From positions 124,001-188,000 of the forward strand of contig JAPDRO010000022.1 of the NCBI GenBank assembly GCA_030247885.1: a stretch of DNA of 64,000 bases. Reading direction: 5' to 3'. Positions 12,851-61,744 of the stretch are shown here, one piece after another (positions within the stretch are counted from its first letter, which is position 1; each line of letters starts with the position of its first letter). The DNA is from Taxawa tesnikishii (nom. ined.) (taxonomy: Eukaryota > Ascomycota > Dothideomycetes > Dothideales). Made by a program: the position numbers and the translations under genes. The notes below the pieces were generated by a model. The model saw only the letters and a list, made by a program, of their open reading frames with translations. It did not search any database and was not told the DNA's origin.

Positions 12851-12881
<31 letters not shown>

Positions 12882-16888: not shown

Positions 16889-19167
16889 CTATACGGGGAC
16901 AACCAGACCCTTGTACACTCCGCCGATACAAGAACCAAGATCCAATCGTGAAACCTTTGACGAACGACAAGCCGCGTGCGATCTCACCTTCGCACCCGAC
17001 AGTAGCAATCCCGAGGCAGACGAGCCAGACGAGCCCGACAGCACCGTACCACGACCCTGAACAGCGAGTATAGCTACAGCAGCAGCAAGTAGTACCAGGT
17101 CTGAGTACCGGACCCAGAAGAGCAGCGATTTCGCAAGCATAGCTAGCACACCCGCACAGAGAAGTGGGAACGAGGCCCAGGCGGAACGGGTCTGTCCATG
17201 TAGTAACATGTCTTTGACCCTATCTCCTTCGGTGCGTAGATGCCCTGGGGCCCGGGAGTCGGTGTACCCCGGAGTCCAAGAGTCGGAAGGACGACGCATT
17301 CCTGCTGACGTGACTTGAGGTACCCGCAGAGAGCCCGTCGACCCTGCGCCGGATGAGGCGCTAGACGGTGAGAGCCCGCCATAGAGGCCTTCGGACGCTG
17401 TGGCGTTGGAGCTGGGCTGGGATGACTGTACGCCCGCTTGTGCTGGTGATGCAGATACGGGGACGGGCGAGCTGATCTGGTGGACTTGCAATAGTCCGGG
17501 GCTGGGTCCTTGTAGTAACGCGCTGCTGGACGAGCCTTGAAGTGACGCGCTGCGGGATAGTCCTTCGGACAGTACCGCGTTGCTGGACGAAATATGACGG
17601 CGCAGACTACTGACGGCTTGAAGACTTGGCGTTCGGGGCGAACAACTTCTTGCACAGACGTACTGGATGAGCTGGGCTGGACTGAGCCTTGAGACGGGGA
17701 TTGAATGGGTTCTTGTAGTCCTTGTGGTGACGTTCCCTGTGCGGTCGCACGGACTAGGCCAGCTTGAGCTGCGGTCTGGGGTAGGGACTCAACAGGTCCT
17801 TGTATTACTGGTCGAGCGGCCCGGCCTTGTAGCAATGGAGATTGGGTGGACCCTTGTGGTAACGTTTGAGCGGCCCGTACTTGTAGTAATGGCTGGGCGG
17901 TTCCGTTTGCAATCGTACGGGTCTGAACTGTACCTTGGACCAGATCGGAGTAAGCGTTGTGTCGACTGTAGATTGCAGCGCTTTCCTGTACAGAGGTAGC
18001 ATTAGGGCGTTGAGCAGCGTGGGCGTGGAAGGTGTGGGTCGGCGCCAGTGGCTCGGTGACTCCGTAGAAGAGGTCGTTGCCTGCGGCAAGGTCGGCGAGT
18101 GGGGCGTCGATTAGGGTGAAGTCTTGAGTGTTGCTCCATGGCCATGGTTGCGTTTCGCCGGCTAGGCTCATCGGGGCTTGTGAAGCGAAGTTGAAGTCGA
18201 CCATGTCGCCGAAGTCGAAGTTTGAGTTCGTCTCATCAAGCACAGTGAGAGTCATGGCGGCGTCAGTGCTGAGGAAAGCGAAGGGGTCGTCGCTGAAGTC
18301 TGCTAGAGACGAAGGCGGTGGTGGCTGTGTTTCAGCGGCTGGTGCCTTGGATCTTTGGCTCGTCGTGACGGACCTGCTCACTTGATTAGAAACCACGTGC
18401 GGCGTGTTGGTCAAGCTCACTGACCTTTTGGAAGCGCCCTTCTGCGAGAGGGTCTCCATTTGTGCCTGGTTGTGGTGGCACTTTCGCTTGCGCTTTGCGC
18501 ACTTGTCGCAAGCCTTGACGATGCGTCGCTTGCGGTACTCGATCTTCTCGGTTTCAGTCATCTTGCGCCGCACGCGGGTCTTAGGCTGAGTCTGGGAAGA
18601 CAGGCTGAAGACGCTGGTCATCTGGTCGAGTGCTGGCGGGCTGGCAGTGCTGTCGAGCCGTTAGCGGGATTCTCTTCTGCCATGGGAGTTGGGCGAGCGT
18701 TCAGAGAAAAGACAAGAGAACCGACCTGCGAGTGGGTTGCCTGCTGAGGGTGGCTGGTTGCGCAGCCGGAGAAGCAAGAGATGCCGGGGTCGCCCAGCCG
18801 AGCAGGTCGGGACTGCTGAATGCCGAGGAGGAAGAGGCGGAGGGGTAGGAAGACCAAGGGGAGGCGGCGGAGCTTTCGAAAGATGCGGTGGATTCTGCTG
18901 GCATGGTCGGCTCGGAAGGTGCGAGAGCAGCTTGGTTTTTGAGCTGTTCTTCATCGCGCTCCCTCATGAGAAATTCGATGACAGCGTTTCGCATGCGCTC
19001 GGAGTGGGTTTTACAAGAGGATAGTGAGCCTTGAGAGCGAAGAAAAGCTCGTCCGAGTCCTTTGGTGGGTAGAACTGGGGAGGAGCGCAGGGGTCGAATG
19101 GTTCGTTAAGGACGTTGTCACGGTAGACAAGGAAACCGGGAGAAGGCAGAGACATGGAGAAATCCAT
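16889..19167 (-). CDS. Half-zinc-cluster regulator with predicted C-terminal membrane helices, about 726 aa
   Basis: Exons 19167-18722 and 18621-16889 (100-nt intron). The sum is 2179 nt and becomes 727 codons if two bases are added. One is at the T4 run 19009-19012, where the frame must pass from AHYPLV to KTHSERMRNAVIEFLM. The other is at the G4 run 17636-17639. Seen: an N-terminal block DFSMSLPSPGFLVYRDNVLN; a basic segment KTRVRRKMTETEKIEYRKRR followed by ACDKCAKRKRKC (Cys near 187, 190 and 197), which is only the first half of a Zn2Cys6 cluster. Next is a Gln/Pro/Ser-rich low-complexity region with repeated LLQG units, then two hydrophobic segments near 634-675 (FPLLCAGVLAMLAKSLLFW and DLVLLAAAVAILAV). 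This resembles a conserved but, as far as I know, uncharacterised Pezizomycotina family. A membrane-tethered transcription factor is an inference. Confidence 0.65.
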
Positions 19168-19352
19168 TGCGGAATAGTTTTGAAGGAGAATAGGGTTTTG
19201 TGGAAAGGTCTGAATGGTTGGCAACGTCTCTGCGGTAGGGCAGAGAGGGGGTGAGACTGTAGATGGACTAAGGATAGTGATAGTGATAGTGATTCGGATC
19301 AAGTGTAATGCTTGCTGGTGTGTTTGTGTTTGTGTGTCGCCCTTGGCGAAGG

Positions 19353-19386
19353 GCGAAGAGCGAAGAGCGAAGAGCGAAGAGCGAAG
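19353..19386. repeat. Tandem heptamer GCGAAGA, about 5 copies
   Basis: Four perfect GCGAAGA units plus a partial fifth, about 190 bp upstream of the half-zinc regulator start, probably in its 5' UTR or promoter. Confidence 0.9.
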
Positions 19387-20186
19387 TTGAACTTCTCGTC
19401 GCTCTCGTGGTGGAGGTGTGTAGGAAGGAAGGGAACAGAAGGATGCTGAGGACGCGAGGCAGAGCGCTGGATAGATAAATCGCACTGTGACAGTTTGTGG
19501 TAGCCTGACGATGCGAGGGTGCAGCTCGGTGTCGAAGACTCGACACCGCACCTCCCAAAGCGTGCTAGCGCGGCGCTGGTACGCTTTGGGAATGGCCGGC
19601 CTGCCAAAGCGAAACTCAATTGGAGTGAGTCAACGCGATCGTCCGGGCAGCCTCAAGTTCAGTCATCCTTTGCGGCCGTTACGTGAGGAGAGGGGAGGAA
19701 GCTGCCACGCCATGCTGTGCTACTGCCGTGCTATCGCTGCGCTGTGCTGTGCTGTGCTGTCCTGATGATCCTGCCTGCAAATGGATAACCATCTCTATTT
19801 CTATACAAGAATCCATCACGCTGAACACAGCAAGAGTATGGAAACAGCAGAATGCAATTCACGTGAAAGCCACAATGTGCATCCGTATGCGTGGTCAGCC
19901 CTGTGCGACGTGGTGGTGAGATGCGGTTGTGTTGCGTGCAGTATGGGAGTTTGAGGACGTCGTAGGGAATAAGTTCATGTGTCAGTCTTGGGTCGCAGTC
20001 AAGGGCAAAGGCTGGTAGGGCAAAGGGGTGGGAGCCAGCTTGGCAGTTGAACGCTCTCTCGCTCTGTATGCATAGAAAGCAAGGCACGCCTGCATTGTTG
20101 TAGCACCGCGTCGTCCCGGACATGGAAGTGCCGTGTGCCGTTGAGCTACTCAAAGCCCATCTGGTGTGCTGCTTGGTCCTCTGCAA

Positions 20187-20222
20187 GATACAGGATACAG
20201 GATACAGGACACAGGATACAGG
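20187..20222. repeat. Tandem heptamer ATACAGG, 5 copies
   Basis: Five units of ATACAGG with one variant (ACACAGG), followed by GGTAC x4 at 20344-20363. Both lie upstream of AIM24. Confidence 0.9.
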
Positions 20223-20861: not shown

Positions 20862-22348
20862 ATGTCTGCAAGTCAAGCGCAGTATTTCGCTCGTAAGTCC
20901 GTGTCTTTCTCTGGTATTCTCCCCTTTACTGACAATCGCCAGCACCTCCCCAAGGTACAGTAAGCGTGCGATCAACCGCAGAATGCCATACTGATCGTAT
21001 AGGGGACGACCGTCCGTCTCCACCGCCTGAGCAAACGTCTTACTTCCCGCCGCCTCAGTCTCACACTTCTCCTAACGGATCCTACTCCTATCCTCCGCCT
21101 CCGCAACAGCAGCCCCAGCAACAGTACCCTTCGCCGGACAACTGGCGGGCATCCTACATACCGACTCCACCACCACCGCAACAGCATTTCACTCCACCTC
21201 CGCAACAGCAACAACAGAGGCAGCACTTTACTCCTCCGCCCACATCATCATCCCAGCAACAGTTCACGCCTCCCCGACGCACGCAGTGGGAGAAGTCCCT
21301 TCTCCATCACCACAATTCCAGCCTCCGCCGCAACAGAGTCTTCCAGTCTACCCCGGACCACCACAGAACGCCGCAGCTGCACCAGTGCAAGAGAAGACAC
21401 ACATGAATACTACACAAGCGGTCAGCACCCCGGGAGGTGCACCCTCGCAGGCCCACTTCGTAGGAGCCGGAACTACAGTCGACGACGTGGGCACTTTCAA
21501 CGGAGGAAGCTACAGGGTCAGCCACCGGGACACTAATACCGTTCTGACCATCCAACTGGCCATGGGGTGTCCGTTGACGGTCAAGCCGGGCGCCATGATC
21601 GCAATGTCACCAACAATGACACTAAAGGGCGCAGTGAAGTTCTCATTGAAGAAGCTCGCCATTGGAGGACAGATGTCGGCGTCCACATTTACCGGGCCGG
21701 GAGAGTTGCTGCTCGCGCCGGCTTCGCTGGGCGATATCACCAATATCAGATTGACGGGCAGTGAGACGTGGAGTGTAGGAAAAGACGCCTTTCTGGCATG
21801 CACCCAAGGTGAGAACATCCTCTCGTCTGATATGGAGCGGATAGTGGGCCAACTCACACGCTCGCAGGTGTTACGAAGGACTACAAAGCGCAGGGCATCA
21901 GCAAAGCAATCTTTTCCGGCGAAGGACTGTTTACGTTCAAAATGTCCGGCGTTGGCTTGGTCTGGATCACCAGCTTAGGCGCCATTATCCGAAAAGATGT
22001 GAGCGACACCTTCCTCCCCCTTCCTCACCTGTTCCGCGCAAAGCTGATGTTTCGGAATAGCTCCAAGCAGGCGAGAAATACATCATCGACAACGGGCACC
22101 TCGTTGCCTGGAACTGCGATTACAAACTCGAGCGCATCGCGAGCGGTGGTATCATCTCTAACATGAGCGCTGGCGAAGGCCTTATTTGCAAATTCACTGG
22201 TGAGTACATATCCCTCGGCATCCGAAGCGAGAAAGAGTGACCCGACTGATGTGAACGTGATGTTGCAGGTCCAGGAACCGTCTTCATGCAGAGCAGAAAT
22301 CCAGTCGCATTTGCTGCGTGGCTTGCAGGTCAAGGTCTGCAAGTGTAA
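20862..22348 (+). CDS. AIM24-family protein (DUF124/TB2-like), 399 aa
   Basis: Exons 20862-20892, 20943-20954, 21003-21808, 21868-21998, 22061-22199 and 22269-22348. The sum is 1199 nt, one short of 400 codons. The missing base fits the C4 run 21272-21275, where TPP must continue into [16 protein letters not shown]. The N-terminal third is Pro/Gln-rich low complexity ([10 protein letters not shown]). Residues from about 175 on are a complete AIM24 beta-barrel: [88 protein letters not shown] and a terminal [18 protein letters not shown]. Known: yeast Aim24 is an inner mitochondrial-membrane protein linked to MICOS. This version has no obvious presequence, so it may be a cytosolic paralogue. 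Exon 2 is only 12 nt. Confidence 0.85.
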
Positions 22349-23832: not shown

Positions 23833-25357
23833 TCATGCCTTGACGGTCTTCCGACCCATGCTCTTCCTCATGTTCTTCTCCCTCTCCTTCTCCAAGAACT
23901 TCCTCGACTCCTCAGCGCTCATGCCCTTGAGCTTCCTGTCGCGTTCCTCCTTCTTCGCTTTGTCGCTCAGCAGCTTGCGTTCCTCGGCCTTCTCCTCCTC
24001 GTCCTGCCGTTTGATCTTACGCATCTCGTCCTCGCGCGTCTGGCGCACACGACGCATGACTTCAGGGCGGAAATGTGCGGCGCTGACGAGATGGTCCGGC
24101 AAGCGGAGGAAGTAAGAGAAGAGAGGGAGGTCGTGGGGGTTGGTGCTGGAGTTGAAGCGGAGGGAGAGTTGGATGCGCTTTTGGGGACGAGCTCGTCGAG
24201 TCTGGATCGCGTGTCAGTGTCTGAATAGCGGCGTGTAGTGTGCAGTGCGATTGAGCAAACTTACTTTTTCGGCGCATCCATGGGCATGTCCGTGATGACG
24301 AGCGCCTCGAGGTCTTCGCCGCAGCTCTCGATAGCCTTGATGAGATCGGGGGTGAGCAGGGTTTCGGTGATCTCGGCGCTCTCGCTCATGACGGTGGCCC
24401 ACTGAGGCAGCTTCGGGTGGTCTTTGGTGGTGGTGAGACTGATGTCGTATCTCTCATCGCGCAAGCGCTTCATCTGGTCCTTGTGCGCAACAACCCACAC
24501 GAAGCCATCATACGTGCTGTCCCTGCCCCTTCTCTCGACCTCCTCGCCCCTTGCTCTCGGGATGACTTGAGCCTCCTTTCCGTCAAAAGCGTAAATGGTG
24601 ATCTCGGCCTTCTCAGTCGGCGCAGGCATGCTCTCGAAGAAGAACCCAATGGCGGCATCACCGATGAGCGCGAGCGGGTTGTAGCGTTTCAGCAGGGACA
24701 GCTTGATATCGACAAACGCAACGTTCTGTCTTCCAGTCGCGTAGCTGACAAACACGTCCTTGCTCTTCTCCTTCAGGGCCTCCTCTGGCGCCTCGAGCCC
24801 CTGCGCGCTCATGGCCTTGGCTAGACCCTGGCTCTGCACATCAGCAGCGCTGGGGCTGTTGCGTCTACCGCCGAACCCTACAGACGCGAACTCCTGCTGG
24901 AGCGAAGGCGTATGTGCGGCCATCCAAGAACGGGCTTTGCGACGGTTGGTGCGCGTGCCGTAGACGTGAATCAGGACGACCAGGGCCAGGAAGGGCAAGA
25001 TGAACATCTCGAGGTAGAAGTCGGCGAGGGTGACGCGTTCGTGCACGCGGTACCATTTGGTGTAGGGTCGGCCCTGCATGGCTTGGACATTACCACCCCA
25101 GAATGAAGGGGTTTCCCTGTGGGTGAGGCTTCTGGGGTCACATAGAGGGAGGTGGGCGATGGTGCGGCGGGAGATGCGAAGTCGGCAAAATCTGAGCACA
25201 AGTCGCGCGTCAGTGATGTTCAATGGCTCTGCTCATAAAGCTTCCCATCCCTGCGAAGCTGAATTGTCGACCTGTTCGTACCTGCATCTTGCGAAGGAGC
25301 TGGCGCGGCCGACGACGACGACTTTGCGCCGAAGAAGCCCTTGACAAAGTCGGCCAT
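23833..25357 (-). CDS. CCDC47/DUF1682-family ER membrane protein, 457 aa
   Basis: Known: CCDC47 is a subunit of the PAT complex that, with the ER translocon, helps multipass membrane proteins fold. Exons 25357-25282, 25191-24265 and 24201-23833 (introns 90 and 63 nt). The sum is 1372 nt, reaching 458 codons if two bases are added. One is at T4/G4 24179-24186, where LDELVPK must run into KRIQLSLRFN. The other is probably at G4 25108-25111. Seen: an N-terminal MADFVKGFFG; Ala/Ser/Pro linker ending in DFADFA; YTKWYRVHERVTLADFYLEM then one membrane helix LPFLALVVLIHVYG; a DUF1682 core with VSYATGRQNVAFVDIKLSLL, NPLALIGDAAIGFFFE and DGFVWVVAHKDQMKRLRDER; FSYFLRLPDHLV; and a long charged Lys/Glu helix at the C-terminus, a hallmark of the family. 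Confidence 0.88.
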
Positions 25358-25793: not shown

Positions 25794-28715
25794 CTAGAAC
25801 CAGCCCTCTTCATCTCCTCTTTCAGCAAGCTTCCCCAACACATCTGTCGCTACCTTTGCCAACCCGTAACTCCCACTCTTCCTGATCCTCGCGGCCGTCC
25901 ACCGCAATACCACCTCCACCAAGCTCAATGCCACCGCTCCGCTTCCATTCTCTACCTGCTCCAGCAGCTGTCGGAACGTGTAATCCAATTCGGCTCGTCT
26001 CAGCGGCTGCCGTGTCGCTGAGACACCACCAGTGGCTTGGTGAGCGGCGTACTTGAGGGGGATATGGGAGAGGTTGTTTGCGGCGTAGGAGCGGGCCCAG
26101 AGCACGAGGGAGGCGAGATGCAACGCCCAGGGGGCGAAGAGGAGGCCAGTGCTCCAACCTCTGCTCGCACCGTCGCTCTGCCAATCCGTGTTTACATTGT
26201 TCTTGCTGTCGTTGGCGACGAGACGCAGTATCTCCCATGCGTGCGCCACTGCAGTGTCCACGGCTCGAGGCGCTGAAGTTGTGAGCTCGAACGTGTCATC
26301 GGATTCGTTGCATGTTGAGTTCAGTGCCCAGCTTCTGACCTCCGCGCGTGCTGTTGCGAACTCTACCGCGTCCACAATCTTTTCGGTGACAAGCCAGGAT
26401 TCGCCGCTGACTGCCAAAAGGGCCCTGACTGGAGTGGATCGCGCGAGACTGAAAGTATGGTAGGCCAACCTTGTCCGGTGAGACGAGTAGGGGTTTGGTC
26501 TTGTATCCAGAGCAGGGTCGCTGCAAAGAATGATGAGCTGACAGTGCAGGAGATCCACGTGATCAATTTGAAGTATGCTGTCTCGACGGAACTGTGTCAT
26601 CGGGTAGTACGGTTGTTGGAGCGTAGGTGATGATGCTGGATGAAGTGCTTTTACCGGCGTCAGAACCATCGAGATGAGTTCGGTTAAGTGAGATTCTGCG
26701 ACCCCGATTTCCAGCACGAGCGATCGACCAAACAGGAGCGAGTGTTGTCTGTCCAACACATAGTACGCTACGAACAAGCGATCCGCAAGCTGTGCATACT
26801 CTGTAGATTGGTCGGGGTCCAGCTGTGCAGAACCCGATGCTACCGCATCATACCGAGATGTAGGTTCTAGGGTCGTGCGAAGCTGGCAAGTCAGCGAAGG
26901 TCGTGATGTTGACGCAATTGAAAACTCACTGATTGGTAGGCAAGGCAAAACGCGGTCGAGAAAGCCCGAAGCGGTCGTCGAGCTTTGAAAACGGAAAACA
27001 ACTCGACCGAGAAGATCGCCTGCATATCACATAACCGGAAGGAATGGGTTGTCGCCTGCTCCCTCTGCGTTCTTGTCAGATAGGGTCTGCTCTCAGTGAG
27101 CATCATTCCATACCTCCCGCAGACATTGCAAGCAGCTCTCATGGATGGAGATGGCTGTTTTATCCTGCCCCAGACAATGCGCGCCTAGGGCAAGCATAGT
27201 AGCCCTCAACAGGGGATTTGCTTGCTCAAGCATGAATGTGTCCCGGTGAAGGATAGGAAATACAGGATGTATGCACTCCCAGTAAGCCTCAAGATAGTTG
27301 AGATTCTCCCTATACTCATCAGAAGCCAAAGCTTGATCAAGAGCGAACGACAGCACCTTTTGTTGTTCCAGCTCGTCCCTCTCCGCGGGGTCATACTGTA
27401 GCCCTCGCCGTGGTTCACCAACATGTTCCTCGCCCCGTACGTATCGTAAACCTGCTCCATGGGCGGATCTGGTGCTTCCATATCGTAAGAGGATTCGGAG
27501 ATGCTGTACGTCGAATATTGGTTCATTGGGGGTATCATCTCTGTTGGATACATGATTGAGGATGTGTTGGACAACGGGGAGCGCGAGGTTGCAGGGTGCA
27601 TGTAGTAGTTGTTTCCAGCACTCAGATAATTGGAAGATTGGCCTCGGGTTTGATAAATGGAGGAACTGGTCGCGAGGGACAGGGCGTTCCATGGTGATTC
27701 GGTTCCACCGGCGTGCTGAAACGGATTGTTCCACTGCGCACCAATGCCCAAACCATCTTGAGCTGCAGGCTCAGGGGTAATATGCAGCGATGGTTGGGGC
27801 TGGGACTGGGGTGGTGTGGAGGTGTAGCTTGGTGGAAAGCTAGGGAAACAAGTCAGCACTGAGCGGTTCAGGTGTCACAAATATTCCACGGCGATCGTTG
27901 TTGCAGACAAACAATGAGAGCGGTTTTGCCAGCTTCAGACCTTCCGATGCTGCTGGTTCAGCGAAGAAAACCGTGCTGGTAGATACGCACCTTGCGTTGT
28001 CCCTTGTTTCCCACACAGCATCTGGATATGCAGGTCCATGCGTAACGTTTGAGTACTGCTGCTCAGCGGCAGCGGCAGGCGCACTAATCGTCCGTAAGCC
28101 GCTGGGCCTTCGACCCGGGATGTTGCCGCTGTCTGGAGCCGATGATGGACGACTTGAGCCACCGCGAGAGCGTAGTGAAGGTGTTGATGAACTGCTGCTT
28201 CGATGACATGTTAGTCCATGGAAGAGAACTTCAGATGGTTCGCCTAACTCACTGCCGTGCTTTATGTCTTATGAGCAGGTCTTCTCGATGGAAAGACCTT
28301 TCGCAACCTTCCAAATCACAAGGGAATTCGCCCGGTTCATGGTTCTTTTGATGTCGCCTGCAACTGCTGTTAGTTCGTTGCCATATCTGGAGGTTTTGCG
28401 TCGTACTTCAAGTGCTCGTTGCGCGTGTAAACCTATCGAACAAGTAAGCCTCGAGCTCGACAACTCTGATCAACTCGCTAGATATGAACGCCAGATAGAA
28501 ACCTGCACAAACGCCAAAACGCCTTTGGCTTCCTCGTTGGGGTGACTCCGAAATTGGTTGAGAAGTGCGTGGTCTTGCACACAAAACGGCAGTCCTACCT
28601 TTCCACATATTTCACACTCGTGTATCCGCAAACCCTTGGTTGCTTTCTTAATGCGCCCGGTTGCGGTGAGTCGAACTTCAGGATCACCTTCCATCAAGTG
28701 CTTTTGAGAATCCAT
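25794..28715 (-). CDS. C2H2 zinc-finger transcription factor with fungal MHR domain, 798 aa
   Basis: Exons 28715-28599, 28432-28407, 28357-28253, 28197-27991, 27839-27114, 27055-26930 and 26882-25794. The sum is 2396 nt, or 799 codons if one base is restored at G4 27387-27390. Two tandem C2H2 fingers are assembled across four small exons: CEICGK|VYTRNEHLK|RHQKNH, then CDLEGCERSFHREDLLIRH. A Ser/Pro linker follows. The fungal-specific transcription-factor domain (MHR, Fungal_trans) begins near NYLEAYWECIHPVFPILHR and continues through ALGAHCL, AIFSVELFSVFKARRPLR and RLFVAYYVLDRQHSLLFGR. Known: the layout of two N-terminal C2H2 fingers plus MHR is a recognised Pezizomycotina class of nuclear regulators. 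The target genes cannot be told from sequence. An in-frame ATG further upstream (28925) would add 70 low-complexity residues; 28715 is preferred because conservation starts just after it. Confidence 0.88.
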
Positions 28716-31872: not shown

Positions 31873-34341
31873 TCAATACTTGTTCACTGTTACCGGAGTT
31901 TGACGGTGTAGGCAATACTGCTGTAGAACGCGGCATGTCGGTTCCAGGAACGCCCCATTAGTTCTCAGGATGGAGCAAATGGGGCGCATCTCGCTTGATC
32001 GAGCGAAGGGCATGATTGGGTAACGGAGAATAGACGACCAGGTTTCCATAAGAGTACGAATTATGTCCTCGAGCCTTCCGTTCTGTTCGGTCTCTCGTTC
32101 GGCCTGCTTTTCAAGTTGAACAATCTTCAAATCCTTTTGGTGAGATTCGCACTCATACTGGCGATTGCGCGCCTCAACTCCTTGAAGTCGATCGCACAGA
32201 TTTCTGAGCTTGTCTAGTTGCTGCTGGGCATTGTTCGATCGCTTCTGTGCCCGTGGCCTATCCTCAGCACCATGAGCTTGCCGTACGCTGAACGTGAAAG
32301 CTAAGTTGGTGTCAAAGCTCGAACACAACCGTACATATGAATCTGACACTCACTGGGATCTGGAATCACAACCGACGTGTTTGTGGGAGTGAGATGACAT
32401 GACTCATACAGAAACCCGAAAAGATCTTTCAGATCAGCTTTGGTGCCCTCGGGATTGGTTGAGCGTCTTGGTCTGGGTGGGCAGCAGTTCTTGCGCCAAA
32501 CATGACGGCGATTGACAGGAGACTGTGTTGCATCGCACGCAGAAGATATGCACTGCACTGTACAACCAGCGTGGACGTTCAGCTCCTCCACTTGCTCGAA
32601 ATGCTCGTAACACCGTAAGCATACGAAGATACCGTGTTTGTCTTTGAAAGCTTTTCTATTGACTCGATCAGCGATCCCCATGCAGCAGGACCAATCTCGA
32701 GGAGCTTACAGCAGTTCGGAGGGTGTCGGAGTTTTACCAGAGCAATTGTCGATAAAACAAGAAATCTGCCAACTTTCTTTCACATTCAGACCGTCATCGC
32801 CACCAGGATCCGGTGGATCCCCGAACGCTTTGTGCCGTTTGTTGTTCCGGCCACCATCATCGCCTGAGCCGCCTGAGGTGTCGTCCAGAAATGGGCGCTT
32901 GCTGCCACCTTCTCTTGTATGGTTGCCGGACTCGCCACTAGAGGTTTGTGAAGAGTTTCCGGACGTCGCGCTTTCGCTCCGGCTGCCATGTTGGTGCTGT
33001 CTGTAGCCCTTCTGTGGAAGGATCTCAGCAAGGTGCAACGACTCCGCCACTTCGACTCCCATTTCATCGTTTCCCTCTTGCTCAACTGACCCGGCATCGC
33101 TCCAGGATCCTTTGTCGCTCACACAATCGCTGTAACATGGCAAACCACGAGGGCTATCAGCTAACGATGCACTCAGATCATCGATGATCCATCTGATTTG
33201 CCCCAGCAGACCTTCTGAAGGCTCGGCCAAAGGCGCTGAAGGCGCTCCGCCATCACCGCTAGACAAAATAGAGCCAGGTGTGTCGGAGGGCTCGCTAGGG
33301 GGCAGGTCTCTAATCGGTACATTATGTGCGTTGTGGACTTGAAGCACGTCGTCTGGAAAAGTCTCCAGCCATGTGGTAAGTGCAGTTCCGCTGATACCTT
33401 GTCCTGTGGCATCTGCGGCAACAACCGCTTTGGTGTTCACTTTCGAGCCAGGTGTTCCGGAGACTGTTTCTGCAAGGACTGGAAACTCAGTGACCCTGTT
33501 GTCTTGCCGTGATCTGGACTGTGCCGGTATCAGGGGCCGAACACCGTCAATCTGTTTTGCCACAGAGGACCTTTCTGGTGTAGTCGTCTTGGGGATCCCA
33601 GTTCTGGGGACTTTGGAACGCTGGTTGTCTTGGATGCAAGACGGACCGTTCCTGACGAACTCGTTTCGGATGATCGTATCGTTGGGGAGTATAAATGTTC
33701 GAGGAGGGACTGTTTGTGACGGTTGCTTTGCATATGCCTCATTAGGCTGTACTTGCTCGTGAAAGCTTCGCGAATGTTGCACCCTTGGAGTGTGCAGCAT
33801 CTCTCGGAGCCTTGATACCACTCCTGGTATCTCCTGTTTGTGCTATGAGTGCTTGCAACTCATGATGCTTCATCACCGACGTACCGTGCGAGGTATTCAT
33901 CAGATTGCCAGATAGATTCGTGACTGGGCACGGTTCTGCTACTACCACTCGACTTGTAGAGCGAAAACGCAGCCGGTGTTGTAGGTAGTTTAGACCGTTT
34001 ATCAGCTTCAAACGTGCCATGTGGAGGACCATCGCTGATGAAAGCGGTTATATCCGTGTTGTAATCCCGTTCCAGTTGACAGTCGAGATTGATCGGATCC
34101 GTTTGTGTCCAATCAGTGTTTGTGTAACCTTCACTTGCTTGATCATTTGATGGTATAGCTCGTTGTGATTCCTGCCACGATGGGTGTGGAAGCGCCCAAC
34201 TATCGAAGACAGAATCATCTAATGATGACTGCGTGGTGGTAGCAGTGTTCGTTAGAGATGAACAAGAGCTCTCCGAGGATTTGGAGGGGAAGCTGAACGT
34301 CGCCCCTCATTCGCTGAATGCGGTCGTCTGAAGTGTTCCAT
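31873..34341 (-). CDS. C2H2-type zinc-finger protein with C-terminal coiled coil, about 770 aa
   Basis: Exons 34341-33885, 33833-32710, 32655-32354 and 32300-31873 (introns 51, 54 and 53 nt). The sum is 2311 nt and reaches 771 codons if two bases are added, at G4 34286-34289 and G4 33684-33687. The start MEHFRRPHSANEG is chosen because this makes every phase agree. Seen: a Ser/Thr-rich N-terminus; one C2H2 finger, CTLQGC..F..KYSLMRHMQSNRH, near 170-190. A long disordered Gly/Asp/Ser region contains KRHKAF. A second Cys/His region runs from ISCFIDNC through KDKHGIFVCLRCYEHFEQVE, ELNVHAGCTVQC and RRHVWRKNCCPP. It ends with a coiled coil of about 80 residues (QLDKLRNLCDRLQGVEAR onwards). The middle part recalls a fungal C2H2 family common in plant-associated ascomycetes. 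Function unknown; a nuclear role is likely. Confidence 0.65.
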
Positions 34342-36205: not shown

Positions 36206-37644
36206 ATGTCTTCCCGCACAGCAAGCAGAGCCGCCACCCGCGCATTGAGGCAATTGAGCCGTCCTGCTGCCCACCAGCAGCGCACTTTCCTGACTGCAGC
36301 CCTCAACGCTGGCAGGCAGACTGCGCCCAAGCAGCTGCTCCCAAAGGCCACCTTCGCTGCCCAGCAGACCAGAGGCATCAAGACCGTCGACTTCGCTGGC
36401 ACGAAGGAGGACGTTTTCGGTATGTGTCGACTCGTTACATTCATACAACATGTGCCTTTGAACGGGACGAGGCAGGAGCTGACATGGCCTCTACAGAGAG
36501 AGCCGACTGGCCGCGCGACAGACTTCTTGTGAGTAGCATCAACCATCACCTCCAGCTTCACCACACCCCAAAACGAGCTCGGCGACTGACTTTGTCATTA
36601 CAGGAATACTTCAAGAATGACACTCTTGCTCTGATTGGTTACGGCTCCCAGGGTCACGGCCAGGGTCTCAACCTCCGTGACCAAGGTCTCAATGTTATTG
36701 TTGGTGTCCGCAAGGATGGTGCCTCATGGAAGGAGGCCATCCAGGATGGCTGGATTCCCGGCAAGAACCTGTTCGACATCGACGAGGCCATCAACAAGGG
36801 CACAATCATCATGAACCTGCTTTCCGATGCCGCCCAGGCCGAGACATGGCCACACATCAAGCCAATGCTCACCAAGGGCAAGGTGCGTACAAAACACAAA
36901 AAAACCAAAATTGGGAAGCCGGTGCAATGAACCTAACACATGGCTCTGATAGACCCTCTACTTCTCTCACGGTTTCTCCCCGTTTTCAGGGACCAGACCA
37001 AGGTCGAGGTCCCATCCGACATCGACGTTATCCTCGTCGCCCCCAAGGGTTCCGGCCGTACCGTCCGCACCCTCTTCCGTGAGGGCCGTGGTATCAACTC
37101 TTCCATTGCCGTCTACCAGGACGTTACGGGCAAGGCCAAGGAGAAGGCCATTGCCATGGGTGTTGCCGTCGGTTCCGGTTACCTCTACGAGACCACCTTC
37201 GAGAAGGAGGTCTACTCCGATTTGTATGGTGAGCGTGGTTGCCTGATGGGTGGTATCCACGGTATGTTCCTCGCTCAGTACGAGGTCCTGCGTGAGCGCG
37301 GCCACAGCCCCTCTGAGGCCTTCAACGAGACCGTTGAGGAGGCCACTCAGTCTCTCTACCCTTTGATCGGTGCCAACGGCATGGACTGGATGTATGCCGC
37401 TTGCTCCACCACTGCCCGTCGTGGCGCCATCGACTGGTCCAGCCGCTTCAAGGACACCCTGAAGCCCGTCTTCGATGACCTGTACACCTCTGTTCAGACC
37501 GGCGAGGAGACCCGCCGCACTCTCGAGTACGCCGGCCAGAAGGACTACCGTGAGAAGTTCGAGGCTGAGATGCAGGAGATCCGCGAGCTGGAGATCTGGA
37601 GGGCTGGCAAGGCTGTGCGTAGCTTGAGACCCGAGAACAACTAG
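36206..37644 (+). CDS. ILV5: Ketol-acid reductoisomerase (acetohydroxyacid reductoisomerase), mitochondrial
   Basis: Known: the second step of valine, leucine and isoleucine synthesis, an NADPH-dependent alkyl migration and reduction in the mitochondrial matrix; in yeast it also packages mtDNA. Exons 36206-36419, 36497-36538, 36604-36882 and 36953-37644 give 1227 nt, exactly in frame, 408 aa. The 42-nt exon 2 encodes ERADWPRDRLL and is easily missed. Seen: a basic presequence (SSRTASRAATRALRQL) up to about residue 60, the Rossmann motif LIGYGSQGHGQG, VGVRKDGASW, the class I knotted domain with ERGCLMGGIHGMFLAQYE, the metal-binding region ETVEEATQSLYPLIG, and a C-terminus VRSLRPENN. All expected regions are intact. 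Codon use is strongly biased to C-ending codons, which suits an abundant protein. Tail to tail with the laccase. Confidence 0.97.
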
Positions 37645-39013: not shown

Positions 39014-42000
39014 TTAGACACCGGAGTCGTCGGTGGAGAGGTCGTGGTTGTCGGCCCACTTGCGCCAGGTGGCACAAGTGTCGTCGAGCATGCAGGTGTC
39101 AGACACGTTGCCCTTGATGTACTCCTGGCCCTCGATGATCTGGAGGGCGAAACCCATGGAGACGTGCCAGCCGATGTGGCAGTGCATGAGCCAGGCACCT
39201 GGGTTGTCGGTGTAGAAGGCAAGCACCAGGTAACCACCCTGACCGGTTGGGCCGTCACCGGGCAAGAACGCCACGTCACGACGCGGAGGGTTGTTCAGGT
39301 TCAGGGTTGGGTTGGCGGCCTCGTAGGTACCGTAGCCGTGGGCAAGGACGAAGAAGTCGTGACCGTGCAAGTGGATAGGGTGACCGAGAGGGACTGGAGA
39401 CTCGATGATGATGTAGACCCACTCGCCAAGGTTGGGGACCTCGATGGCAAGGTTGCCAGAGTAGTCGGGCACGGTGCCGTTGTTGACGATATCGTAGAGG
39501 GTGGCATCGGCCCAGTTGGTTTGGAAGGTGGTGCCATCGAGGTACCAGCGGTACAGGTTGATCGGGTTGGAGTTGGAGACGATGACAGTGTGCTCGATCT
39601 GCTGGGAGGAGGCACCGACGGTCATTGGGGCAATGGGGACCAGATTGGTGGAGTTCTCGTCAACACAGTAACCGACCGCAGTGTCGCCAAGGTACTTGCG
39701 GTCGTAGTCGTACGCGGTGGAGTTCGGGCTGCCACTGTAGCCGCTGTAGTTGATGATGGCCTTGATGTCGTAGCTCTGGATGGTGGAAGCGCAAGCGTTC
39801 TGGTTGTCGAAGCGCATCCAGTAGCTTCCGGGAGTCTGGTCGGCAGTGACAACAATCTCGTAACGCTGACCGATGTTGATGTTCAGGATGTCGGTTTCGT
39901 AAGGCACGATGGGGACGAAGTCAGCGGAGATGACCTGGAACTTGTGGCCGTCGATGTAGAACTTGTAGGTAGACTGGATGGCACCATTGAGCAGACGGAT
40001 CAGGTACTTCTTGCCCGGCTCGAAGTCAGTTGGAACAGTGTAGCGCACACCAGTCTGGTTAGCGGTACCATCGGCACCCCAGGTGTTCTTGCCGTTGATG
40101 AGACCGTTGTCCATGGTGCGGACGCCGTTGATCTCCGCGTCGCGGTACATAGCGTCGACTGGGATATGGCTCCAGTCCTGAACGATGACAGGATCAAGCT
40201 CGACATCGTAGGTGGCAGAGTGAGGACCGTGGATGATGATAGGACCGAAGATACCCTCGTAGGTCTGGAGAGACAAGTGAGAGTGGTACCAGGAGAAACC
40301 GTAGTTCTCAGCCCTGAAGGTGTAGGTCATAGACTCGCCAGGAGCAAGGGCACACTGAGTGACAGAGACGACACCGTCCATCTCGTTGGAGTTGAGCTGG
40401 CGGAAACCGTGCCAGTGGACAGAGGTACCGTTGAGAGACATGCTGTTGGTGACAGTGATCTGGAGAATGTCACCCCAGTTGGCTTCGATGAGAGGACCGG
40501 GGGTCTGGCCGTTGACACAGAGGGCGGTGCGCTCAATGCCATCGGGAGACACAGTGCACTCGGTCAGGTCGAGCTGGACTGGGACAACGTTGCAAGTGAT
40601 AGGGGTGTTTTCGTACGAGTTGGTGTTGACGTCGAAGCCACAGTATTGGCCGCTCCCTTGACCCTCACAAGGAACGCAAGCTGCGGTGGCAGTTGGCTTG
40701 ACAGAGCACAGGGTGGTGTTGGTGACAACGGTATGGTTGGGCGAGAGGCCAGGGCTGGGGAACAGGGGAGCAGCGGAGCTGGTGCTGGTAATGGTGGCGT
40801 TGCTCGAGGTGGTCGAGTTCAGGGACGCAGTGCTGGTGGTAAGAGGAGCGGTTGGGCCAACAGTGGTAGAGCTGGTGCCGTTGTAGCCAACCGAGGTGCT
40901 GGAGCTGGTAGTAACTGGGGCAGTGGGTCCAACGGGGACAGAGCTGGTGGTACCGTTGTAGCCGAAAGAGCTGGTGGAGGAAGAGCTGCTGGAGATGCTG
41001 AGCGTCACAGTGGAACCAGTGCCGGTTGGGCCAACGTAGGTGAAGCTAGTGCTGTTGTAGTTGACGGACGATGCAGAGCTGCTGCTGTCGGTACCGTATC
41101 CACCAGTGCCAGTTGGGTAAGATGGCAGACTGGAAGTCGAGCTGATGACAGTGTAGACACCGGTGCCGGGATAAGATGGCACAGTAGAAGAGGAGGTCTG
41201 GTTCTCGTATGGGGCTGGGACGCTGCTAGAGCTGTCGACGGTGCTGCTGGAACCAGTACCGACTGGGGCGGTTGGGTAGACAGGGCCGCTGTAAGTGGGA
41301 AGGCTGGAGGAGCTCTCACTGGAGAAGCTGGACGAACCAGTGGAGATCGGACCGACTGGGTAGGTGCTGCTGAGGGACGAGCTCAGGCTCGAAGAGGAAG
41401 AGCCGGTGCCGTAGCCGCCAGTTCCAATAGGGTAGGATGGAAGAGTTGAACTCGAGCTAGCGGAAGCGGAAGCGGAAGACGAAGAACCGGTCGAGATTGG
41501 GCCCACCGGGTAAGTCGAGGCAGAAGACACAGTGGAAGAGCTCGCGCTGGAGGAGACAGAGCTACTGTCAGCGTAAGCACCGGTACCCGTTGGGTAGGAT
41601 GGAACAGAGGTGGTGCCATTGCCGTATGGAGCATCGCTGGAGCTGACAGTGACTGGGACGGTGATGCAGGTTGTGGTCGAAACAACAGCAGTTGTTATGT
41701 AAGTGCTGGTCGAACCGCTGATGACCGACGTAGCAGTCGTCGTGTAAACCGTGCTTACAACGGTAGTGGTGCTGCCGACTGGAATGGTGATGGTGCTGGT
41801 GCTGTCGGCAGGAGTAGTGACGGTGCTGGAGCTCTCAGTGGCAGAGCTCGAGCTGCTGGACTCGGTGACCGGACCAGCTGGGTAAGTGCTGGACTCAGAG
41901 GCAGAGCCAGAGCTGGAAGCACTGGTTGGCTGGTAAACCGAGCCACTGTACGCTGGCAGGCTGTCGCTGGCGCTGTCGGAAACGGTCACAGACGAAGAGC

Positions 42001-42837
42001 TGCTCGATTCGGTGGCAGAGGCACCGGAGGAGGTAGGGCCGACTGGGCTGACCGGAGATGAGCTCGATTGAGAAGCAGAGGAAGGAAGAGAAGTAGAGTC
42101 CAAGCTGGAGCCGGACACAGTCGATGGCTCGTAAACAGAGCCGCTGTAGGTTGGGAGACCAGTGCTGGAGCTGGTAGACTCGGTGACTGGGGAAACCACA
42201 ACTGGGCCGGAGGAAGAGCTGCTGGCCTCGGACGCCATGCTGGTAAGAATGGAAGAGCTGTCATACGAAGGGAAGCCGCTGGTTGGGATGGGAGACGCGC
42301 TGGAGGCGGAGGCACTGGTGCCGGGGTAAGAGACGAGGCTGCCGCTCGAGCTTCCGGAGACAGGGCCGATGATGGTGGAGCTGCTGCTGGCGGGTGTGGC
42401 AGAAGCAACGGAGCTGCTGGCGGTAGATCCAGGGACCACAGACGAGGTGACGGTGTCAGTCTCAGTGTATGTGCTTGTGATGATGCTGGATGTGCTCAGG
42501 ACGGTTGTGGTGCCGGAGGTGGTGATGGTCTCGCCAGACAGGCAGGTTGTGATGGTGGTCTTGATAACGGAAGTCACGTAGACCTTGCTGCGGGAGCTGA
42601 AGCCGTGGTTCTCGGCCTGGGGGCCCATGGCTGGTAGGGCTGTGGTGCCTTGTAGGGCTGCGGCTTGTGCTCCTCCGCAGCCTTCTCCCACGCGCTGGCC
42701 CACTTGCCAAAGTTGCCAAAGTTCATCCAAGAGTTGTCGGCGGGCTTCTTGGCTTCCTGCTCACCCCATCCCTGGAATCCTGGTGCAGCGAGCGCCGGGA
42801 CAGCGCTGACTGCCGCGAGGGCGACGGCGAACCTCAT
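39014..42837 (-). CDS. Secreted ascomycete laccase (multicopper oxidase) with a long Ser/Thr-rich N-terminal stalk, 1274 aa
   Basis: Known: laccases oxidise phenols with four coppers and reduce O2 to water. One intronless frame, 3824 nt; restoring one base at the G5 run 42619-42623 joins the signal peptide (MRFAVALAAVSAVPALAAPG) in frame to the rest. Residues about 90-705 are Ser/Thr/Pro/Gly/Tyr-rich with repeated SYPTGTGGYG and YPVGPISTGSSS units, which should be heavily O-glycosylated. The oxidase (about 715-1274) has all copper motifs: HWHGF near 809, WYHSH near 849, HPIHLHGHDF near 1160, and HCHIGWHVSMGF near 1222. Phe occupies the axial type-1 position. The C-terminal DSGV is the plug processed in ascomycete laccases. 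A stalk over 600 residues long is unusual, as typical ascomycete laccases are 560-620 aa in total. Confidence 0.93.
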
Positions 42838-48091: not shown

Positions 48092-49014
48092 CTATGCCAC
48101 AAGTGCCGTCGCCACCACAACCGCAGCAAGCGCCACGAACGCCGGGACAGCGCCCAACCCGCTCGCAGCACCAGTCTGACTGCTGGTCTGCGCCGCAGCG
48201 CTCGCGGTACCACTCGCCGCAGCCGCCGTCGTGTTCGTCGCCGCCTCCTTTTCCTCCAGAGAGTAGCCCCCACACCCGTCGAGTTGACGCAGTCAGCGCC
48301 GGCAAGCAGCTGCGCGTCGTCGGTGAACGTGATATCCGCACACTATCTCCATCAGTCTTTCTCCCCAACAACCCGATCATTCACCCGCAGCAGTATGAGA
48401 GAAGGGAAGGATGGGAGGGAGGGAGGGAGATAGGACACTCGCTCGGAGGCTTGTTCGAAAAATTGGGACACCAAAACTTACGTTATACAGCGCATTCCCG
48501 GTATGACTGATCTGCACGAATTGCAAGCTCGCGTTGGTGCCGGCGACGATGCCCGCCTGCGCCAGCGCCGCGCGTCCGACTTGGGGCAGGCAGAAGGAGC
48601 CGTTGCCCGTCTGGTTGAAGTCGCCGAGGAGCGAGATGTTGAAGTTTGTCACGGTGTTGCCGAGGCCGAGGTTGATGTAGGTGAAGGCGAAGGGGTGCGA
48701 GACGTGCATGGAGACGGAACCGCCGGTGAGCGGCCACGCGGTGCGGTTGTTGGCCGATGTGTCTTGGGAGATGTTGGCGCCTGGGGACGGTGAGTAAGTA
48801 TGGAGGAGAGATGGGACTGGAGGAGGAAAGGGAACAGGAAAGGGAACAGGAAAGGGAAGGTGCAGGAGGGGAAAAGAGAGGACGACGCACAGGGCCAGAT
48901 CCATTCAGATGCGTCGTCGGCGAAGGCATCGCCGCGCCACCACGGGTATTGAACCGTGAAGTGTGCGGCGGTAAGGTGTAGCAGGCTCAGAAGGACAGCT
49001 ACGAGGACGGCCAT
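48092..49014 (-). CDS. BIM1-like (X325) copper-binding GPI-anchored surface protein, 224 aa
   Basis: Known: the family resembles lytic polysaccharide monooxygenases but has no oxidase activity; Cryptococcus Bim1 helps copper uptake at the cell surface. Exons 49014-48891, 48780-48482 and 48342-48092. The sum is 674 nt, becoming 225 codons if one base is restored at C5 48267-48271 (plus strand). Seen: signal peptide MAVLVAVLLSLLHLTAA cleaved before His, giving an N-terminal His-Phe-Thr (copper-brace histidine), PWWRGD, WIWPCAN, a second His in SVSMHVSHPFAF, N-glycosylation sites, GSFCLPQV and CADITFTDD; then an Ala/Ser/Thr linker and a hydrophobic tail VPAFVALAAVVVATALVA typical of GPI addition. 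The GPI tail is read only after the frame correction, which supports that correction. Confidence 0.85.
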
Positions 49015-52420: not shown

Positions 52421-54241
<1,821 letters not shown>

Positions 54242-54545
54242 AGCAGCATCAGTGCTGTTGATGTGACTGACAATGCATATGAAGAGTTTTTGTTTGCTGG
54301 TTATGTGGCGCTCTCGAATGGCGTGACGAGCGTGTGTTCCCGTGCGGTCCCCTTTGGAGATCAACATGCAGTTGACCAATCACATCCAAAGGTCCTCCCA
54401 AGTGAGGGTCCACCATCAGGTGGAAGCCGGAGTGTCCAAATGGTATGAGCCACAACGGTCCTGATGTTTTCCTCAGAGTGCGACACGGTAGCAGTCAAGC
54501 GACATCCGTACCCGCAGGAACCATGCTAGCTAGAGCGGTAACATA

Positions 54546-56609: not shown

Positions 56610-57830
56610 GGCGTGAGCAGGAGCGAAGCAGAGGGGCCATCTGTCAACTGTGTTGCACACTCAACATACGTTCTATATGTAGCAAGCAACGCCGACAAGT
56701 AATCACTTATCTTGCCGTGCGTACCGCACATTGTCTACGTTCTTCTTGGCTGCAGCAAGTGAGTTTTGTAGATGCCTTTTCGGGCTCTGCAGGATCGAAC
56801 CATGGTTGTCTTTGAACAGAAGCCGTGCTTGGCTGCAGTAAACAGCCTTCGAGCGAACCCGATGCGTCGTTAAGCGTGGGGCTTATCTTCGCTGTCTGCT
56901 GGAGGTGCAAAGGAAGTTGCCCTATCTCAGATGCCAAGTGCGGAAATCCCGCAAAAGTGCAGAGCGGAATCGAACACTTGGCGTGTACTCGCACTCTGGA
57001 AAGCTCGAGGTCAGGTTCAGCGAAGTCCGCACAGACAGCAAGATGTGAGCATTGAGTGTGAGGTCTTGCCTGTACTGCAAAGTATATGTGCTGCTCGCGT
57101 GAACGACGCGGGTTCGCTGGTCTTGCTCGCCGCTGAGCCTCGCGCCTGCCAAAGGTTTCACGAACGTTGTTCGATTTTGCATGCATCCCTGACACAATGG
57201 CAATTCTCAAAATTCATCTTGTGGTCGCCGACGTGGCACGCTTTGTATGCAAGGACATGCCCTCCGCACTCAGTCCGGCTGCTACACAGCTTGCCGAAAA
57301 TTGGCAATGTCAAGGTTAACAACGAGTCCGCTAGGACAACAAGCAACGCGTGCGACAGATCCTTTGATGGCGCCATGAGCGCAGGTTGTTGAGGCAAAGA
57401 AGGCGAGGCTTGTAGAGCAGCGTTCGTGCGCTGTGAGCGGTTCGTATTTGTGAGGCTGCAATTCTGCACGGTCTATTCCGAGATCGCTGGTCTTGAAGCC
57501 AATGATCAGCACCCAGGGCGGGCATCTGCATCCGGTGAAGCACCGGGCAGGGATGCGGAGGGCGGACGTGCGACGCGACACAGGCAAACGTCGGCGTGCG
57601 CGCAGAAACGCAATGTTCTGTGTTGTTAGCGACCACAACAGCGGTGTTTTCGCGCCCCGCAGCACATGAACAGAGCAGCGAGGGAAGAGGCCGTGCGCCC
57701 GACATTGGCAAAGTCTGATAAGGACAACGTCCTTCTGGATTCGGCAGTCCGTTCCCCGGACATTCTTCCGCTGCGTGCTTGCCTGTCTCTGGCTAGTGAT
57801 GACGACTTGCCGTCGGAGTTGGCAGCAACA

Positions 57831-57886
<56 letters not shown>

Positions 57887-59018: not shown

Positions 59019-61744
59019 ATGCACCAACATCCTCGTCCTGCGCCGAAGAGCGCCTCGCCCGCCAACGCTCCCCAAACCAACCCGATGAGAACCAACAACC
59101 AGAGGGAAGAGACATTCGCCCAATCTCAGTCCAGTCAGGAGCTCAGGGGCGATACGGAAAGAGACAGCAGCAGTAGAGACGGGGGAGCGAGGGAGGGCGC
59201 CCAGACGGGGCGTCTGCAGCATCGAACACAGAGATGGACAGGTTGAACTTGATTGTTCAGGTACATATATATACGCGCTCCTGGGAGTCCTTTGCGTACG
59301 GGAAGCTGACGAGGAGATACAGCATTTCTTTTCCAAGGCGGCGCTTATTATACTCTCGTCTCGTGTGGGCCTTTCGCCTGCATACACCAAGGACAATGAA
59401 ATCCGGCTTGACAAGTGGGTAAGTTTGCTTCTCTGTATCTCGTTGGACCCGTAATACAGGGACGAGGCAAGTCGGCCTTACCTGCATTCTGCTTGCAGTG
59501 GAGCCTGCCGGGTAGAGCAGAGCAGTGTAGGTATCGGAGCATTCTGGTTGAAGCAGGACTATCTTTATGCGTGGGCAGAGTGCTGTGCATGCCCATTCGT
59601 GCTCCATGCTCCATCATCTTGTCCCGATCAGGATACGCAGCAGACTCTACTCATTGCTCAGAGGTGTTTGTCCTTCTCTTTGCATCCGCCCTTGCCGTCT
59701 CTGTTTGTCCGTTGTAGAAAGGAGTTTGTGGCTCGCGCTCTTGCACAAAGAGGGCAGGATAGTTGCAGACACGGGCTTTATTCATTAGCCTAAAGTTTCT
59801 GTCTTCTTGATGACATTCCGGTGCTGATCAATGGTGCAGTTCAACATATGGCTCGAGGACACGAACGCTTTAAGCGATGTGTTGCAAGAATGGAAGACCA
59901 TGAATGCTGTCAAGCGGCGACCGTCTCGTCTAGTCATCGAGCTGTATCTTGACACGGCGAAGTTGACCCAGAACCAAACGCTCGTTGTAGTGGATGACGA
60001 GGGCAAACGGTGGTCGGTCGATGAGGCTCTGGAGAGGGAGGGCGTGTCAGGGACGCCTCCGCCCTCGGAGGTAGTTTATGAGCGCTGGACAATTAGCCTG
60101 GACGATCCCTCTACTGCACCAGCAGTGCAGCTCACAGATGCGCCGCCTAATGTCTACAAGAAGGGAGTGGTGTTGCTGAGGTCACTGTGGACGTACCTGC
60201 GGTTCCTACCTGCGTGGAAGCTCGGACGCCGCATGAATAGGCAAGCCGGTAACGTGCAAACCATAAAGCCGCGTTTCAGGATCTTCAGCGACGCGTCTCC
60301 GACACCACCACCGACAACTCTGACCTGCCCTCTCACATCAGACACATTGTCCACAACAGAAGATTATCACTTCGCACCTCTCCTCTGCGGCTTTGGCCCC
60401 TGAACATCCAAGTTACCTACCGAACCAACACGGATTTCCATGTCGAGTCTGCAGAACAGCTACTCTCTGAACATCTACTGGGAGCCGCATCCGGACAGCC
60501 CTTCCTTCAGCTATCTTCGGGGAAGGAGGTGAAGTGGGACAAATGGAGTATCGAATTTCACCCAAACACGGCCCACGATCCGAACAGGTGCCCGGAACTC
60601 GCCGAGTACACCAGACGTCTTCAGCAGGCGGGATGGACGTGCAACCTGATGGTCCTAGCCCCTCACGACGACATGATTACCCGAATTCCACCAGAGCTGG
60701 GCTTGCCGCCACTCCAAGCATTCAGGCTGTCCAGGACCGTCCCGGCCTTCTGGGTGAGACGCTTGTAGGTTCTGTGCCTACCAAATTACCGCCCGATCAC
60801 CGCACAGCTACGGGTTCGAAATCCTCACTCAAGTCCACCGAGGGCGGCATCTCAGCACAGCGGCGTCCGTCAGTCACATTCAACCCGTTCAAAGCAGGTT
60901 CATTGTCTTCTTCTCCCGGTACCACACAGCTTCCATCACCTTCGCCAAGCAGCTCGCTCGGCAGAAACGCAGCAGCGGCCACAGCAGCGATCAATACCCC
61001 TTTACGCACCAGCGAAACCGATCCTCCCTCTCTACACTACCACAACAGGCACTTCGCGCACCATCCGCCTCTACCATGCAAAACGAAAGCGCAATAGCAC
61101 CATCCTCAACATCTAGTTCGCCAAAACCAGCGCCCCTCCAGCGCTACTCCAGCTCCTTCAGCAACCGACGCGCGCGCTTCCTCCAGCGCTGGCAGCAAGG
61201 TCGACGAAGACGCGACTAGCAGCGGGCGTGGCAGCGTCTCCTCCGCGCGCCGCAGCTCCGCCACTATCGACCCCACGACTACTTCCACCTCCGACACCGC
61301 GCCCGCAGATGACTCGACCGACATCGCGGACTTCCTGAAGCTGCTGGATAAGGGCAGCAGAGGTCTGACATCCTTCTCGACCCCGGACGTGGCGGCGAAC
61401 AGCGCGCGCACCGCCGCGCAGTACAACCGCTTCGCAAGGATGAGGGATAGCACGGCCCAGCTGAGCGATAGTCTGAGTAGCAGCGTTATGCTGCATAGGA
61501 GCAGTACGTCGAGTTCGCGCGTGCCTCCGCTCTCCTCCTCCAGCTCGCCCGGCAAGACTGTTAGCCCGCTGACGCCGCATACGCCGGCTGTGCCGAGTAG
61601 GCTGAGAGAGGGCAGTGGGGAGGTGGGTGGGGGTGAGAGGGGGAGGAGAGGGACAGGGATGAGGGTGCGGGTGCGGGTGGTGGGGAGGGAGAAGAGGAGG
61701 GCGAGGAGCCGTTGCTTTTCGCCATGAGCGAGATGGGCCGCTAG
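59019..61744 (+). CDS. ATG13: Autophagy-related protein 13
   Basis: Known: Atg13 is the TORC1-regulated adaptor of the Atg1 kinase complex. Exons 59019-59260, 59323-59418 and 59840-61744, with introns of 62 and 421 nt. The N-terminus MHQHPRPAPKSASPANAPQT runs to EMDRLNLIVQ. The HORMA domain follows: FFSKAALIILSSRVGLSPAY, RLDKW|FNIWLEDTNAL, RPSRLVIELYLDT, TLVVVDDEGKRW, VVYERWTISLDD, NVYKKGVVLLRSLWTYLRFL. The disordered tail keeps Atg13 landmarks: QRRPSVTFNPFK, SSPKPAPLQRYSSSF, TDIADFLKLLDKG, AQYNRFARMRDS, GKTVSPLTPHTPAVPSRL and EEPLLFAMSEMGR. The frame moves to -1 several times, near G5 59181-59185, C4 60397-60400, C4 60659-60662, CCC 61026-61028 and G runs near 61681-61690. There is a further shift near 61170. 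The order of landmarks is intact, so the locus is complete but the sequence as given is not continuously open. Confidence 0.85.

What the first reader, a model, noticed from the sequence alone, without database searches (positions are those of the whole stretch)
17636..61744. Recurrent single-base losses at short homopolymers break at least nine conserved genes, always to the -1 frame
Seen: in the half-zinc regulator (G4 17636-17639, T4 19009-19012), AIM24 (C4 21272-21275), CCDC47 (24179-24186, G4 25108-25111), C2H2-MHR (G4 27387-27390), C2H2/coiled-coil (G4 33684-33687, G4 34286-34289), laccase (G5 42619-42623), BIM1-like (C5 48267-48271), PRMT3 (CCC 52803-52805, C5 53496-53500) and ATG13 (about six), conserved protein sequence jumps to the -1 frame at a run of 3-5 identical bases. 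Exon lengths divide by three only when exactly the inferred number of bases is added. Chitin synthase, eIF2-beta, Mim2, Ilv5, OPT and amidase need none. The losses never go the other way except perhaps once in ATG13. Inference: residual deletion errors in the consensus. Ordinary annotation would mislabel these as pseudogenes or add false introns. A real -1 recoding habit at homopolymers is the remote alternative.
Basis: partly seen in the sequence, partly recalled or inferred. Interest (0 to 1): 0.75.

Follow-up and report, generated by a model that had tools for sequence, protein, structure and literature searches.

The report
Lost bases in a fungal assembly
Several genes in this piece of a fungal genome look broken because single bases seem to be missing, mostly at short runs of one letter; this is most likely leftover sequencing error rather than biology, so it matters for annotation only.

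Summary
Largely right, and most likely an artefact. Of the 12 sites named outside ATG13, I support 8, call AIM24 probable, and could not establish 3 (half-zinc 17636, CCDC47 25108, C2H2 34286). In ATG13 one of "about six" is well supported. Ilv5, listed as clean, also shows a -1 jump, hidden by an acceptor-like TTTTCAG. The strongest case is PRMT3 site 2: solved PRMT chains continue from one frame to the other across about five bases. A codon-usage posterior blind to homopolymers falls on runs of 4 or more bases more than chance allows (5.0 of 16 against 1.8; 1 of 20,000 shifts; still 4 of 20,000 for the better set without Ilv5). In-frame XXXYYYZ slippery heptamers: none in 15 of 16 candidate overlaps, one in the weakest, though few were expected. 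A run-length spectrum that looked like shrinkage appears also in finished E. coli and is discarded. Best explanation: residual one-base deletion errors in the consensus, about one per 2 kb of the coding pieces I could define. No reads, relatives or organism name were available, so error is inferred, not shown. Low interest.

The parts
52799..52833 (+).
   Evidence: codon-only 90% interval; no run of 4 or more in the open overlap
53481..53503 (+). PRMT3-like gene, second -1 frame change (f2 to f1), inside the methyltransferase core; holds a run of five C
   Evidence: 2fyt chain 127 in one frame, 128 in the other, about 5 bases between
24157..24201 (-). CCDC47-like gene, -1 frame change just after a 63-nt intron (24264-24202) that itself keeps the frame
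   Evidence: 9i78 chain 4 residues 331 then 335; PF07946 211 then 214
36956..36996 (+).
   Evidence: KARI_N profile gap 91-102, three-frame view, 7toc alignment from chain residue 140, codon posterior 0.72 on a run
60395..60403 (+). ATG13-like gene, -1 frame change near the end of the ATG13 domain
   Evidence: PF10033 32-219 of 233 runs to within a codon of the stop; next frame continues; codon posterior does not localise it
42617..42651 (-). laccase-like gene, -1 frame change near the N-terminus
48257..48276 (-). BIM1-like gene, -1 frame change before the C-terminal tail
   Evidence: posterior 0.78 on runs
27384..27400 (-). C2H2-MHR regulator, -1 frame change
   Evidence: posterior peaks on the run
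33678..33700 (-). C2H2/coiled-coil gene, -1 frame change
   Evidence: posterior peaks on the run; no Pfam support
18989..19038 (-). half-zinc regulator, -1 frame change; a 71-nt intron is a rival reading
   Evidence: no Pfam support
21140..21396 (+). AIM24-like gene, probable -1 frame change in P/Q-rich sequence; place not resolved

Best explanation
The window is from a fungus, probably a filamentous ascomycete (inferred from MIT1-type remodeller domains), and its consensus carries residual one-base deletion errors, mainly at short homopolymers. Shown: in PRMT3 and CCDC47 conserved protein continues in the -1 frame, and over the candidates the frame change tends to lie on runs of 4 or more. 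Inferred: that the missing bases exist in the living genome and were lost in base-calling or consensus building, probably of long reads.
For: PRMT3 pieces match the same solved chains on both sides of about 5 bases. CCDC47 pieces match 9i78 at 68-331 and 335-455. Ilv5: KARI_N gap of 12 positions and 7toc alignment. ATG13: profile to 219 of 233 before the jump. A homopolymer-blind codon posterior puts 5.0 units on runs of 4 or more against 1.8 for a uniform placing over 16 candidates (1 of 20,000 circular shifts reaches it), 3.54 against 1.04 over 11 (0 of 20,000), 2.82 against 0.87 over those without Ilv5, which I had added after seeing its run (4 of 20,000), and 3.33 against 1.37 over 14, without Ilv5 and C2H2 34286 (19 of 20,000). 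In 3000 simulated random losses the method is unbiased (0.055 against 0.053) with a median placing error of 5 nt. Density: 11 jumps in a hand-made set of 21,056 nt of coding pieces. Ten genes of unrelated function are touched. Known error type: in nanopore assemblies of the fungus Drechmeria coniospora long-read polishing left at best 82% of 305 conserved single-exon genes correct, errors being mostly in homopolymers (PMC7500977, passages); Homopolish describes systematic indels in homopolymers (PMC8011154, passages).
Against: No reads or sister strains could be examined. PRMT3 site 1 has no run of 4 or more in its open overlap; AIM24 and ATG13 posteriors do not fall on their runs. The mean posterior on runs is 0.31 per site, against 0.55 for only 6 simulated losses in runs of 5 or more. 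The junction stretches are richer in runs than the simulated ones (uniform 0.11 against 0.053), so the simulation's P values flatter the case; the circular shifts are the fairer test. The Drechmeria paper found more insertions than deletions after polishing, and says PacBio-only fungal assemblies do not share the homopolymer problem, so a deletion-only pattern is not what every pipeline gives. Five noncoding G/C runs of 10-14 survive, unlike raw nanopore data (recalled). The deficit of G/C runs of 5-9 is seen also in E. coli and supports nothing. Two +1 shifts are unexplained.
Confidence: 0.9

Rival explanations
1. True mutations: the genes are real pseudogenes or the isolate carries genuine frameshift alleles.
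For: The sequence as given does break these reading frames.
Against: The PRMT3, CCDC47 and Ilv5 domains align well on both sides without in-frame stops in the aligned spans; ten unrelated genes in 64 kb, by one base and in one direction, is not how decay is expected to proceed (general knowledge).
Confidence: 0.05
2. Introns: the frame changes are ordinary introns misread as jumps.
For: explains half-zinc 19009, AIM24 and Ilv5 with introns; transitions in OPT, BIM1-like and chitin synthase are introns. In CCDC47 a 119-nt intron ending at 24146 would also give the new frame.
Against: PRMT3 site 2 leaves about 5 bases between aligned residues. Codon segments overlap at both PRMT3 sites and in laccase. 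The CCDC47 alternative would cut out residues that align to 9i78 from 335 on, and the other acceptor giving that frame runs into a stop after one codon. The Ilv5 intron would drop 12 profile positions.
Confidence: 0.03
3. Programmed or habitual -1 ribosomal frameshifting at homopolymers.
For: -1 frameshifting exists in Pezizomycotina: PaYIP3, with U UUU UCC, not itself a canonical heptamer, plus a pseudoknot (PMC3777964, passages). The better-supported jumps are all -1. One in-frame XXXYYYZ lies in the second, weak ATG13 overlap.
Against: No in-frame XXXYYYZ in the other 15 of 16 candidate overlaps; but only 1.5 were expected in the first 11, so the absence is not by itself significant. Runs of 3-5 in unrelated genes. 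PaYIP3 gave about 1% in yeast (perhaps more in its host, as the authors say), too little for genes that need full-length product. Downstream structures were not tested.
Confidence: 0.02

Closest known systems
Residual homopolymer indel errors in long-read consensus sequences (e.g. Drechmeria coniospora nanopore assemblies, PMC7500977)
   Same: Single-base indels at short homopolymers that break conserved fungal genes.
   Different: Here the better-supported jumps are all deletions, whereas that paper found more insertions after polishing; the technology behind this window is unknown.
PaYIP3 -1 programmed frameshift of Pezizomycotina (PMC3777964)
   Same: A -1 frame change between two open frames in a filamentous ascomycete gene.
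   Different: [quoted passage not shown] here many unrelated genes, and no XXXYYYZ at the better-supported sites.

Membership tests
Long-read consensus deletion error | Coding continues in the -1 frame where no intron explains it | tested here: met
   PRMT3 site 2, CCDC47; Ilv5 and ATG13 by profile
Long-read consensus deletion error | Preference for homopolymers, judged without homopolymer knowledge | tested here: met
   with calibration; PRMT3 site 1 is an exception (run of 3)
Long-read consensus deletion error | Deletions in one direction | tested here: inconclusive
   11 of 11 higher-ranked jumps are -1; two +1 shifts not followed up; 4 of 14 neutral pairs at 12 bits are +1, not inspected
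Long-read consensus deletion error | Accurate reads show other run lengths | not testable with these tools
   no reads held; no own genome held
Long-read consensus deletion error | Shortage of longer runs across the window | tested here: inconclusive
   deficit of G/C runs of 5-9, but 50 kb of finished E. coli shows a similar shape
Programmed -1 ribosomal frameshifting | In-frame X XXY YYZ slippery heptamer | tested here: not met
   0 in the overlaps of all 11 higher-ranked jumps; 1 in 16 candidates, at the weak second ATG13 site
Programmed -1 ribosomal frameshifting | Downstream stimulatory structure | not tested
   not run

The most novel reading that the evidence does not exclude
The run lengths are real and this fungus decodes many ordinary genes by -1 slippage at runs of 3-5 identical bases without canonical slippery heptamers, a habit of which I saw no report among the 12 of 18 papers listed (PaYIP3 being a single-gene case).
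Probability: 0.01. Interest if true: 0.95.

Novelty: not a real feature. Interest (0 to 1): 0.1.

Why it matters
Only for annotation: gene callers would call these genes pseudogenes or add false introns. My own splice model did so in Ilv5, where the intron it chose skips a dozen conserved profile positions. A homopolymer-blind codon posterior with simulated losses is a cheap check when reads are not at hand.

Tried and rejected
Run-length spectrum as proof of shrinkage: deficits of G/C runs of 5 and more looked telling, but 50 kb of finished E. coli K-12, mostly coding, shows a similar excess at 4 and deficit at 5-6, so it was dropped; no finished fungal sequence was at hand as a better control. 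Neutral scan: of 9 pairs at 16 bits, 4 are jumps discussed here (half-zinc among them), 4 are introns (two in AIM24, one each in OPT and BIM1-like), 1 is an antisense shadow over PRMT3; the 14 pairs at 12 bits were only counted. Paper searches (no paper; 11 listed) gave nothing that I used; (12 of 20 listed) I read none. Possible jumps in the MIT1 C-terminal part and near ATG13 60519 were scored but left open. The two +1 shifts were not pursued. Organism not identified.

Full report
What the window is. No whole genome is held for it. Pfam finds a MIT1-type remodeller (zf-PHD-like, MIT1 chromodomain, SNF2, C-terminal Mit1 zinc finger), chitin synthase, SpoU methylase, eIF2-beta, AIM24, CCDC47, a Fungal_trans regulator, Ilv5, a multicopper oxidase, BIM1-like, OPT, a PRMT, an amidase and ATG13. 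I infer a filamentous ascomycete; the species was not identified.

Do the frame jumps exist? In PRMT3 the piece in one frame reaches chain residue 127 of 2fyt at base 53495 and the piece in the -1 frame takes up residue 128 at base 53501: no intron fits. In CCDC47 the two pieces match 9i78 chain 4 at 68-331 and 335-455 and PF07946 at 1-211 and 214-326. A 63-nt intron lies between but keeps the frame, so a -1 change remains just after it. Of five AG sites tested after that donor, one earlier site gives the new frame but meets a stop after one codon, and one later site (119 nt) gives it but would cut out residues that align to 9i78. In ATG13, PF10033 positions 32-219 of 233 run to within a codon of the stop and the next frame continues; its 421-nt upstream intron fits the frame. 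Its codon posterior does not localise the jump. Laccase, BIM1-like, C2H2-MHR, C2H2/coiled-coil, half-zinc and PRMT3 site 1 rest on coding statistics and reading by eye.

Ilv5 is not clean: KARI_N lacks positions 91-102 between the two pieces, what look like those residues are read in another frame just before the second piece (the pattern is recalled, and a 26-residue piece found no relative), and the downstream piece aligns to 7toc from residue 140. An intron ending at TTTTCAG, as, would keep the frame but drop those positions. Half-zinc 17636, CCDC47 25108, C2H2 34286 and most ATG13 sites are not established; AIM24 is probable. Chitin synthase has a 47-nt intron with PF01644 running 88 then 87 across it.

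Are homopolymers preferred? I therefore computed, from codon usage alone, the posterior of the jump within the stretch where both frames are open. Over all 16 candidates, weak ones included, 5.0 units fall on runs of 4 or more against 1.8 for uniform placing (1 of 20,000 shifts). Simulated random losses give no bias (0.055 against 0.053) and a median placing error of 5 nt. The preference is real but not total: PRMT3 site 1 lies at a run of 3, and AIM24 and ATG13 do not localise.

Direction. All 11 higher-ranked jumps are -1. One search placed five -1 shifts (one, at 48801, is an intron of BIM1-like misread) and two +1 shifts that I did not pursue. The neutral scan gave 8 to 1 at 16 bits and 10 to 4 at 12 bits, mixed with introns.

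Mechanism. Eleven jumps in a hand-made 21,056 nt of coding pieces are about 5 per 10,000, near the Q33 that Homopolish's table gives for a Racon-polished nanopore assembly of a bacterium. A nanopore-only fungal genome shows the same damage, though with more insertions than deletions after polishing. Recoding: no in-frame slippery heptamer at any of the 11, one in 16 candidates; few were expected, so this is weak by itself. The better argument is the number of unrelated genes. True pseudogenes: domains are otherwise intact where aligned.

Noticed in passing
39017-42760 (-): The multicopper oxidase ORF is 1248 codons; the three Cu-oxidase domains start only at residue 733, after a long region that is Ser/Thr-rich at least in part of the first 120 residues printed.
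   Followed up: no
36956-36996 (+): Ilv5 has a -1 frame change that my splice model turned into a longer intron.
   Followed up: yes
12428-12696 (+): The MIT1 C-terminal zinc finger lies in another frame than the preceding coding stretch; a further -1 change or an intron.
   Followed up: partly
13290, 14035, 14504, 23136, 47375: Five G/C runs of 10-14 bases outside my coding pieces, where about 0.1 is expected, while there is none of 7-9 in the window.
   Followed up: partly
57822-57886; 12838-12881: GCA trinucleotide arrays of about 22 and 15 copies.
   Followed up: no
59419-59839 (+): A 421-nt intron fits in ATG13, long beside the 47-nt and 63-nt introns in chitin synthase and CCDC47.
   Followed up: no
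15827 and 61160 (+): The splice model placed +1 shifts here, against the one-direction pattern.
   Followed up: no
L001: Finished E. coli K-12 shows an excess of G/C runs of 4 and a deficit of runs of 5-6 against a second-order Markov model, so such spectra are a poor test for run shrinkage.
   Followed up: yes
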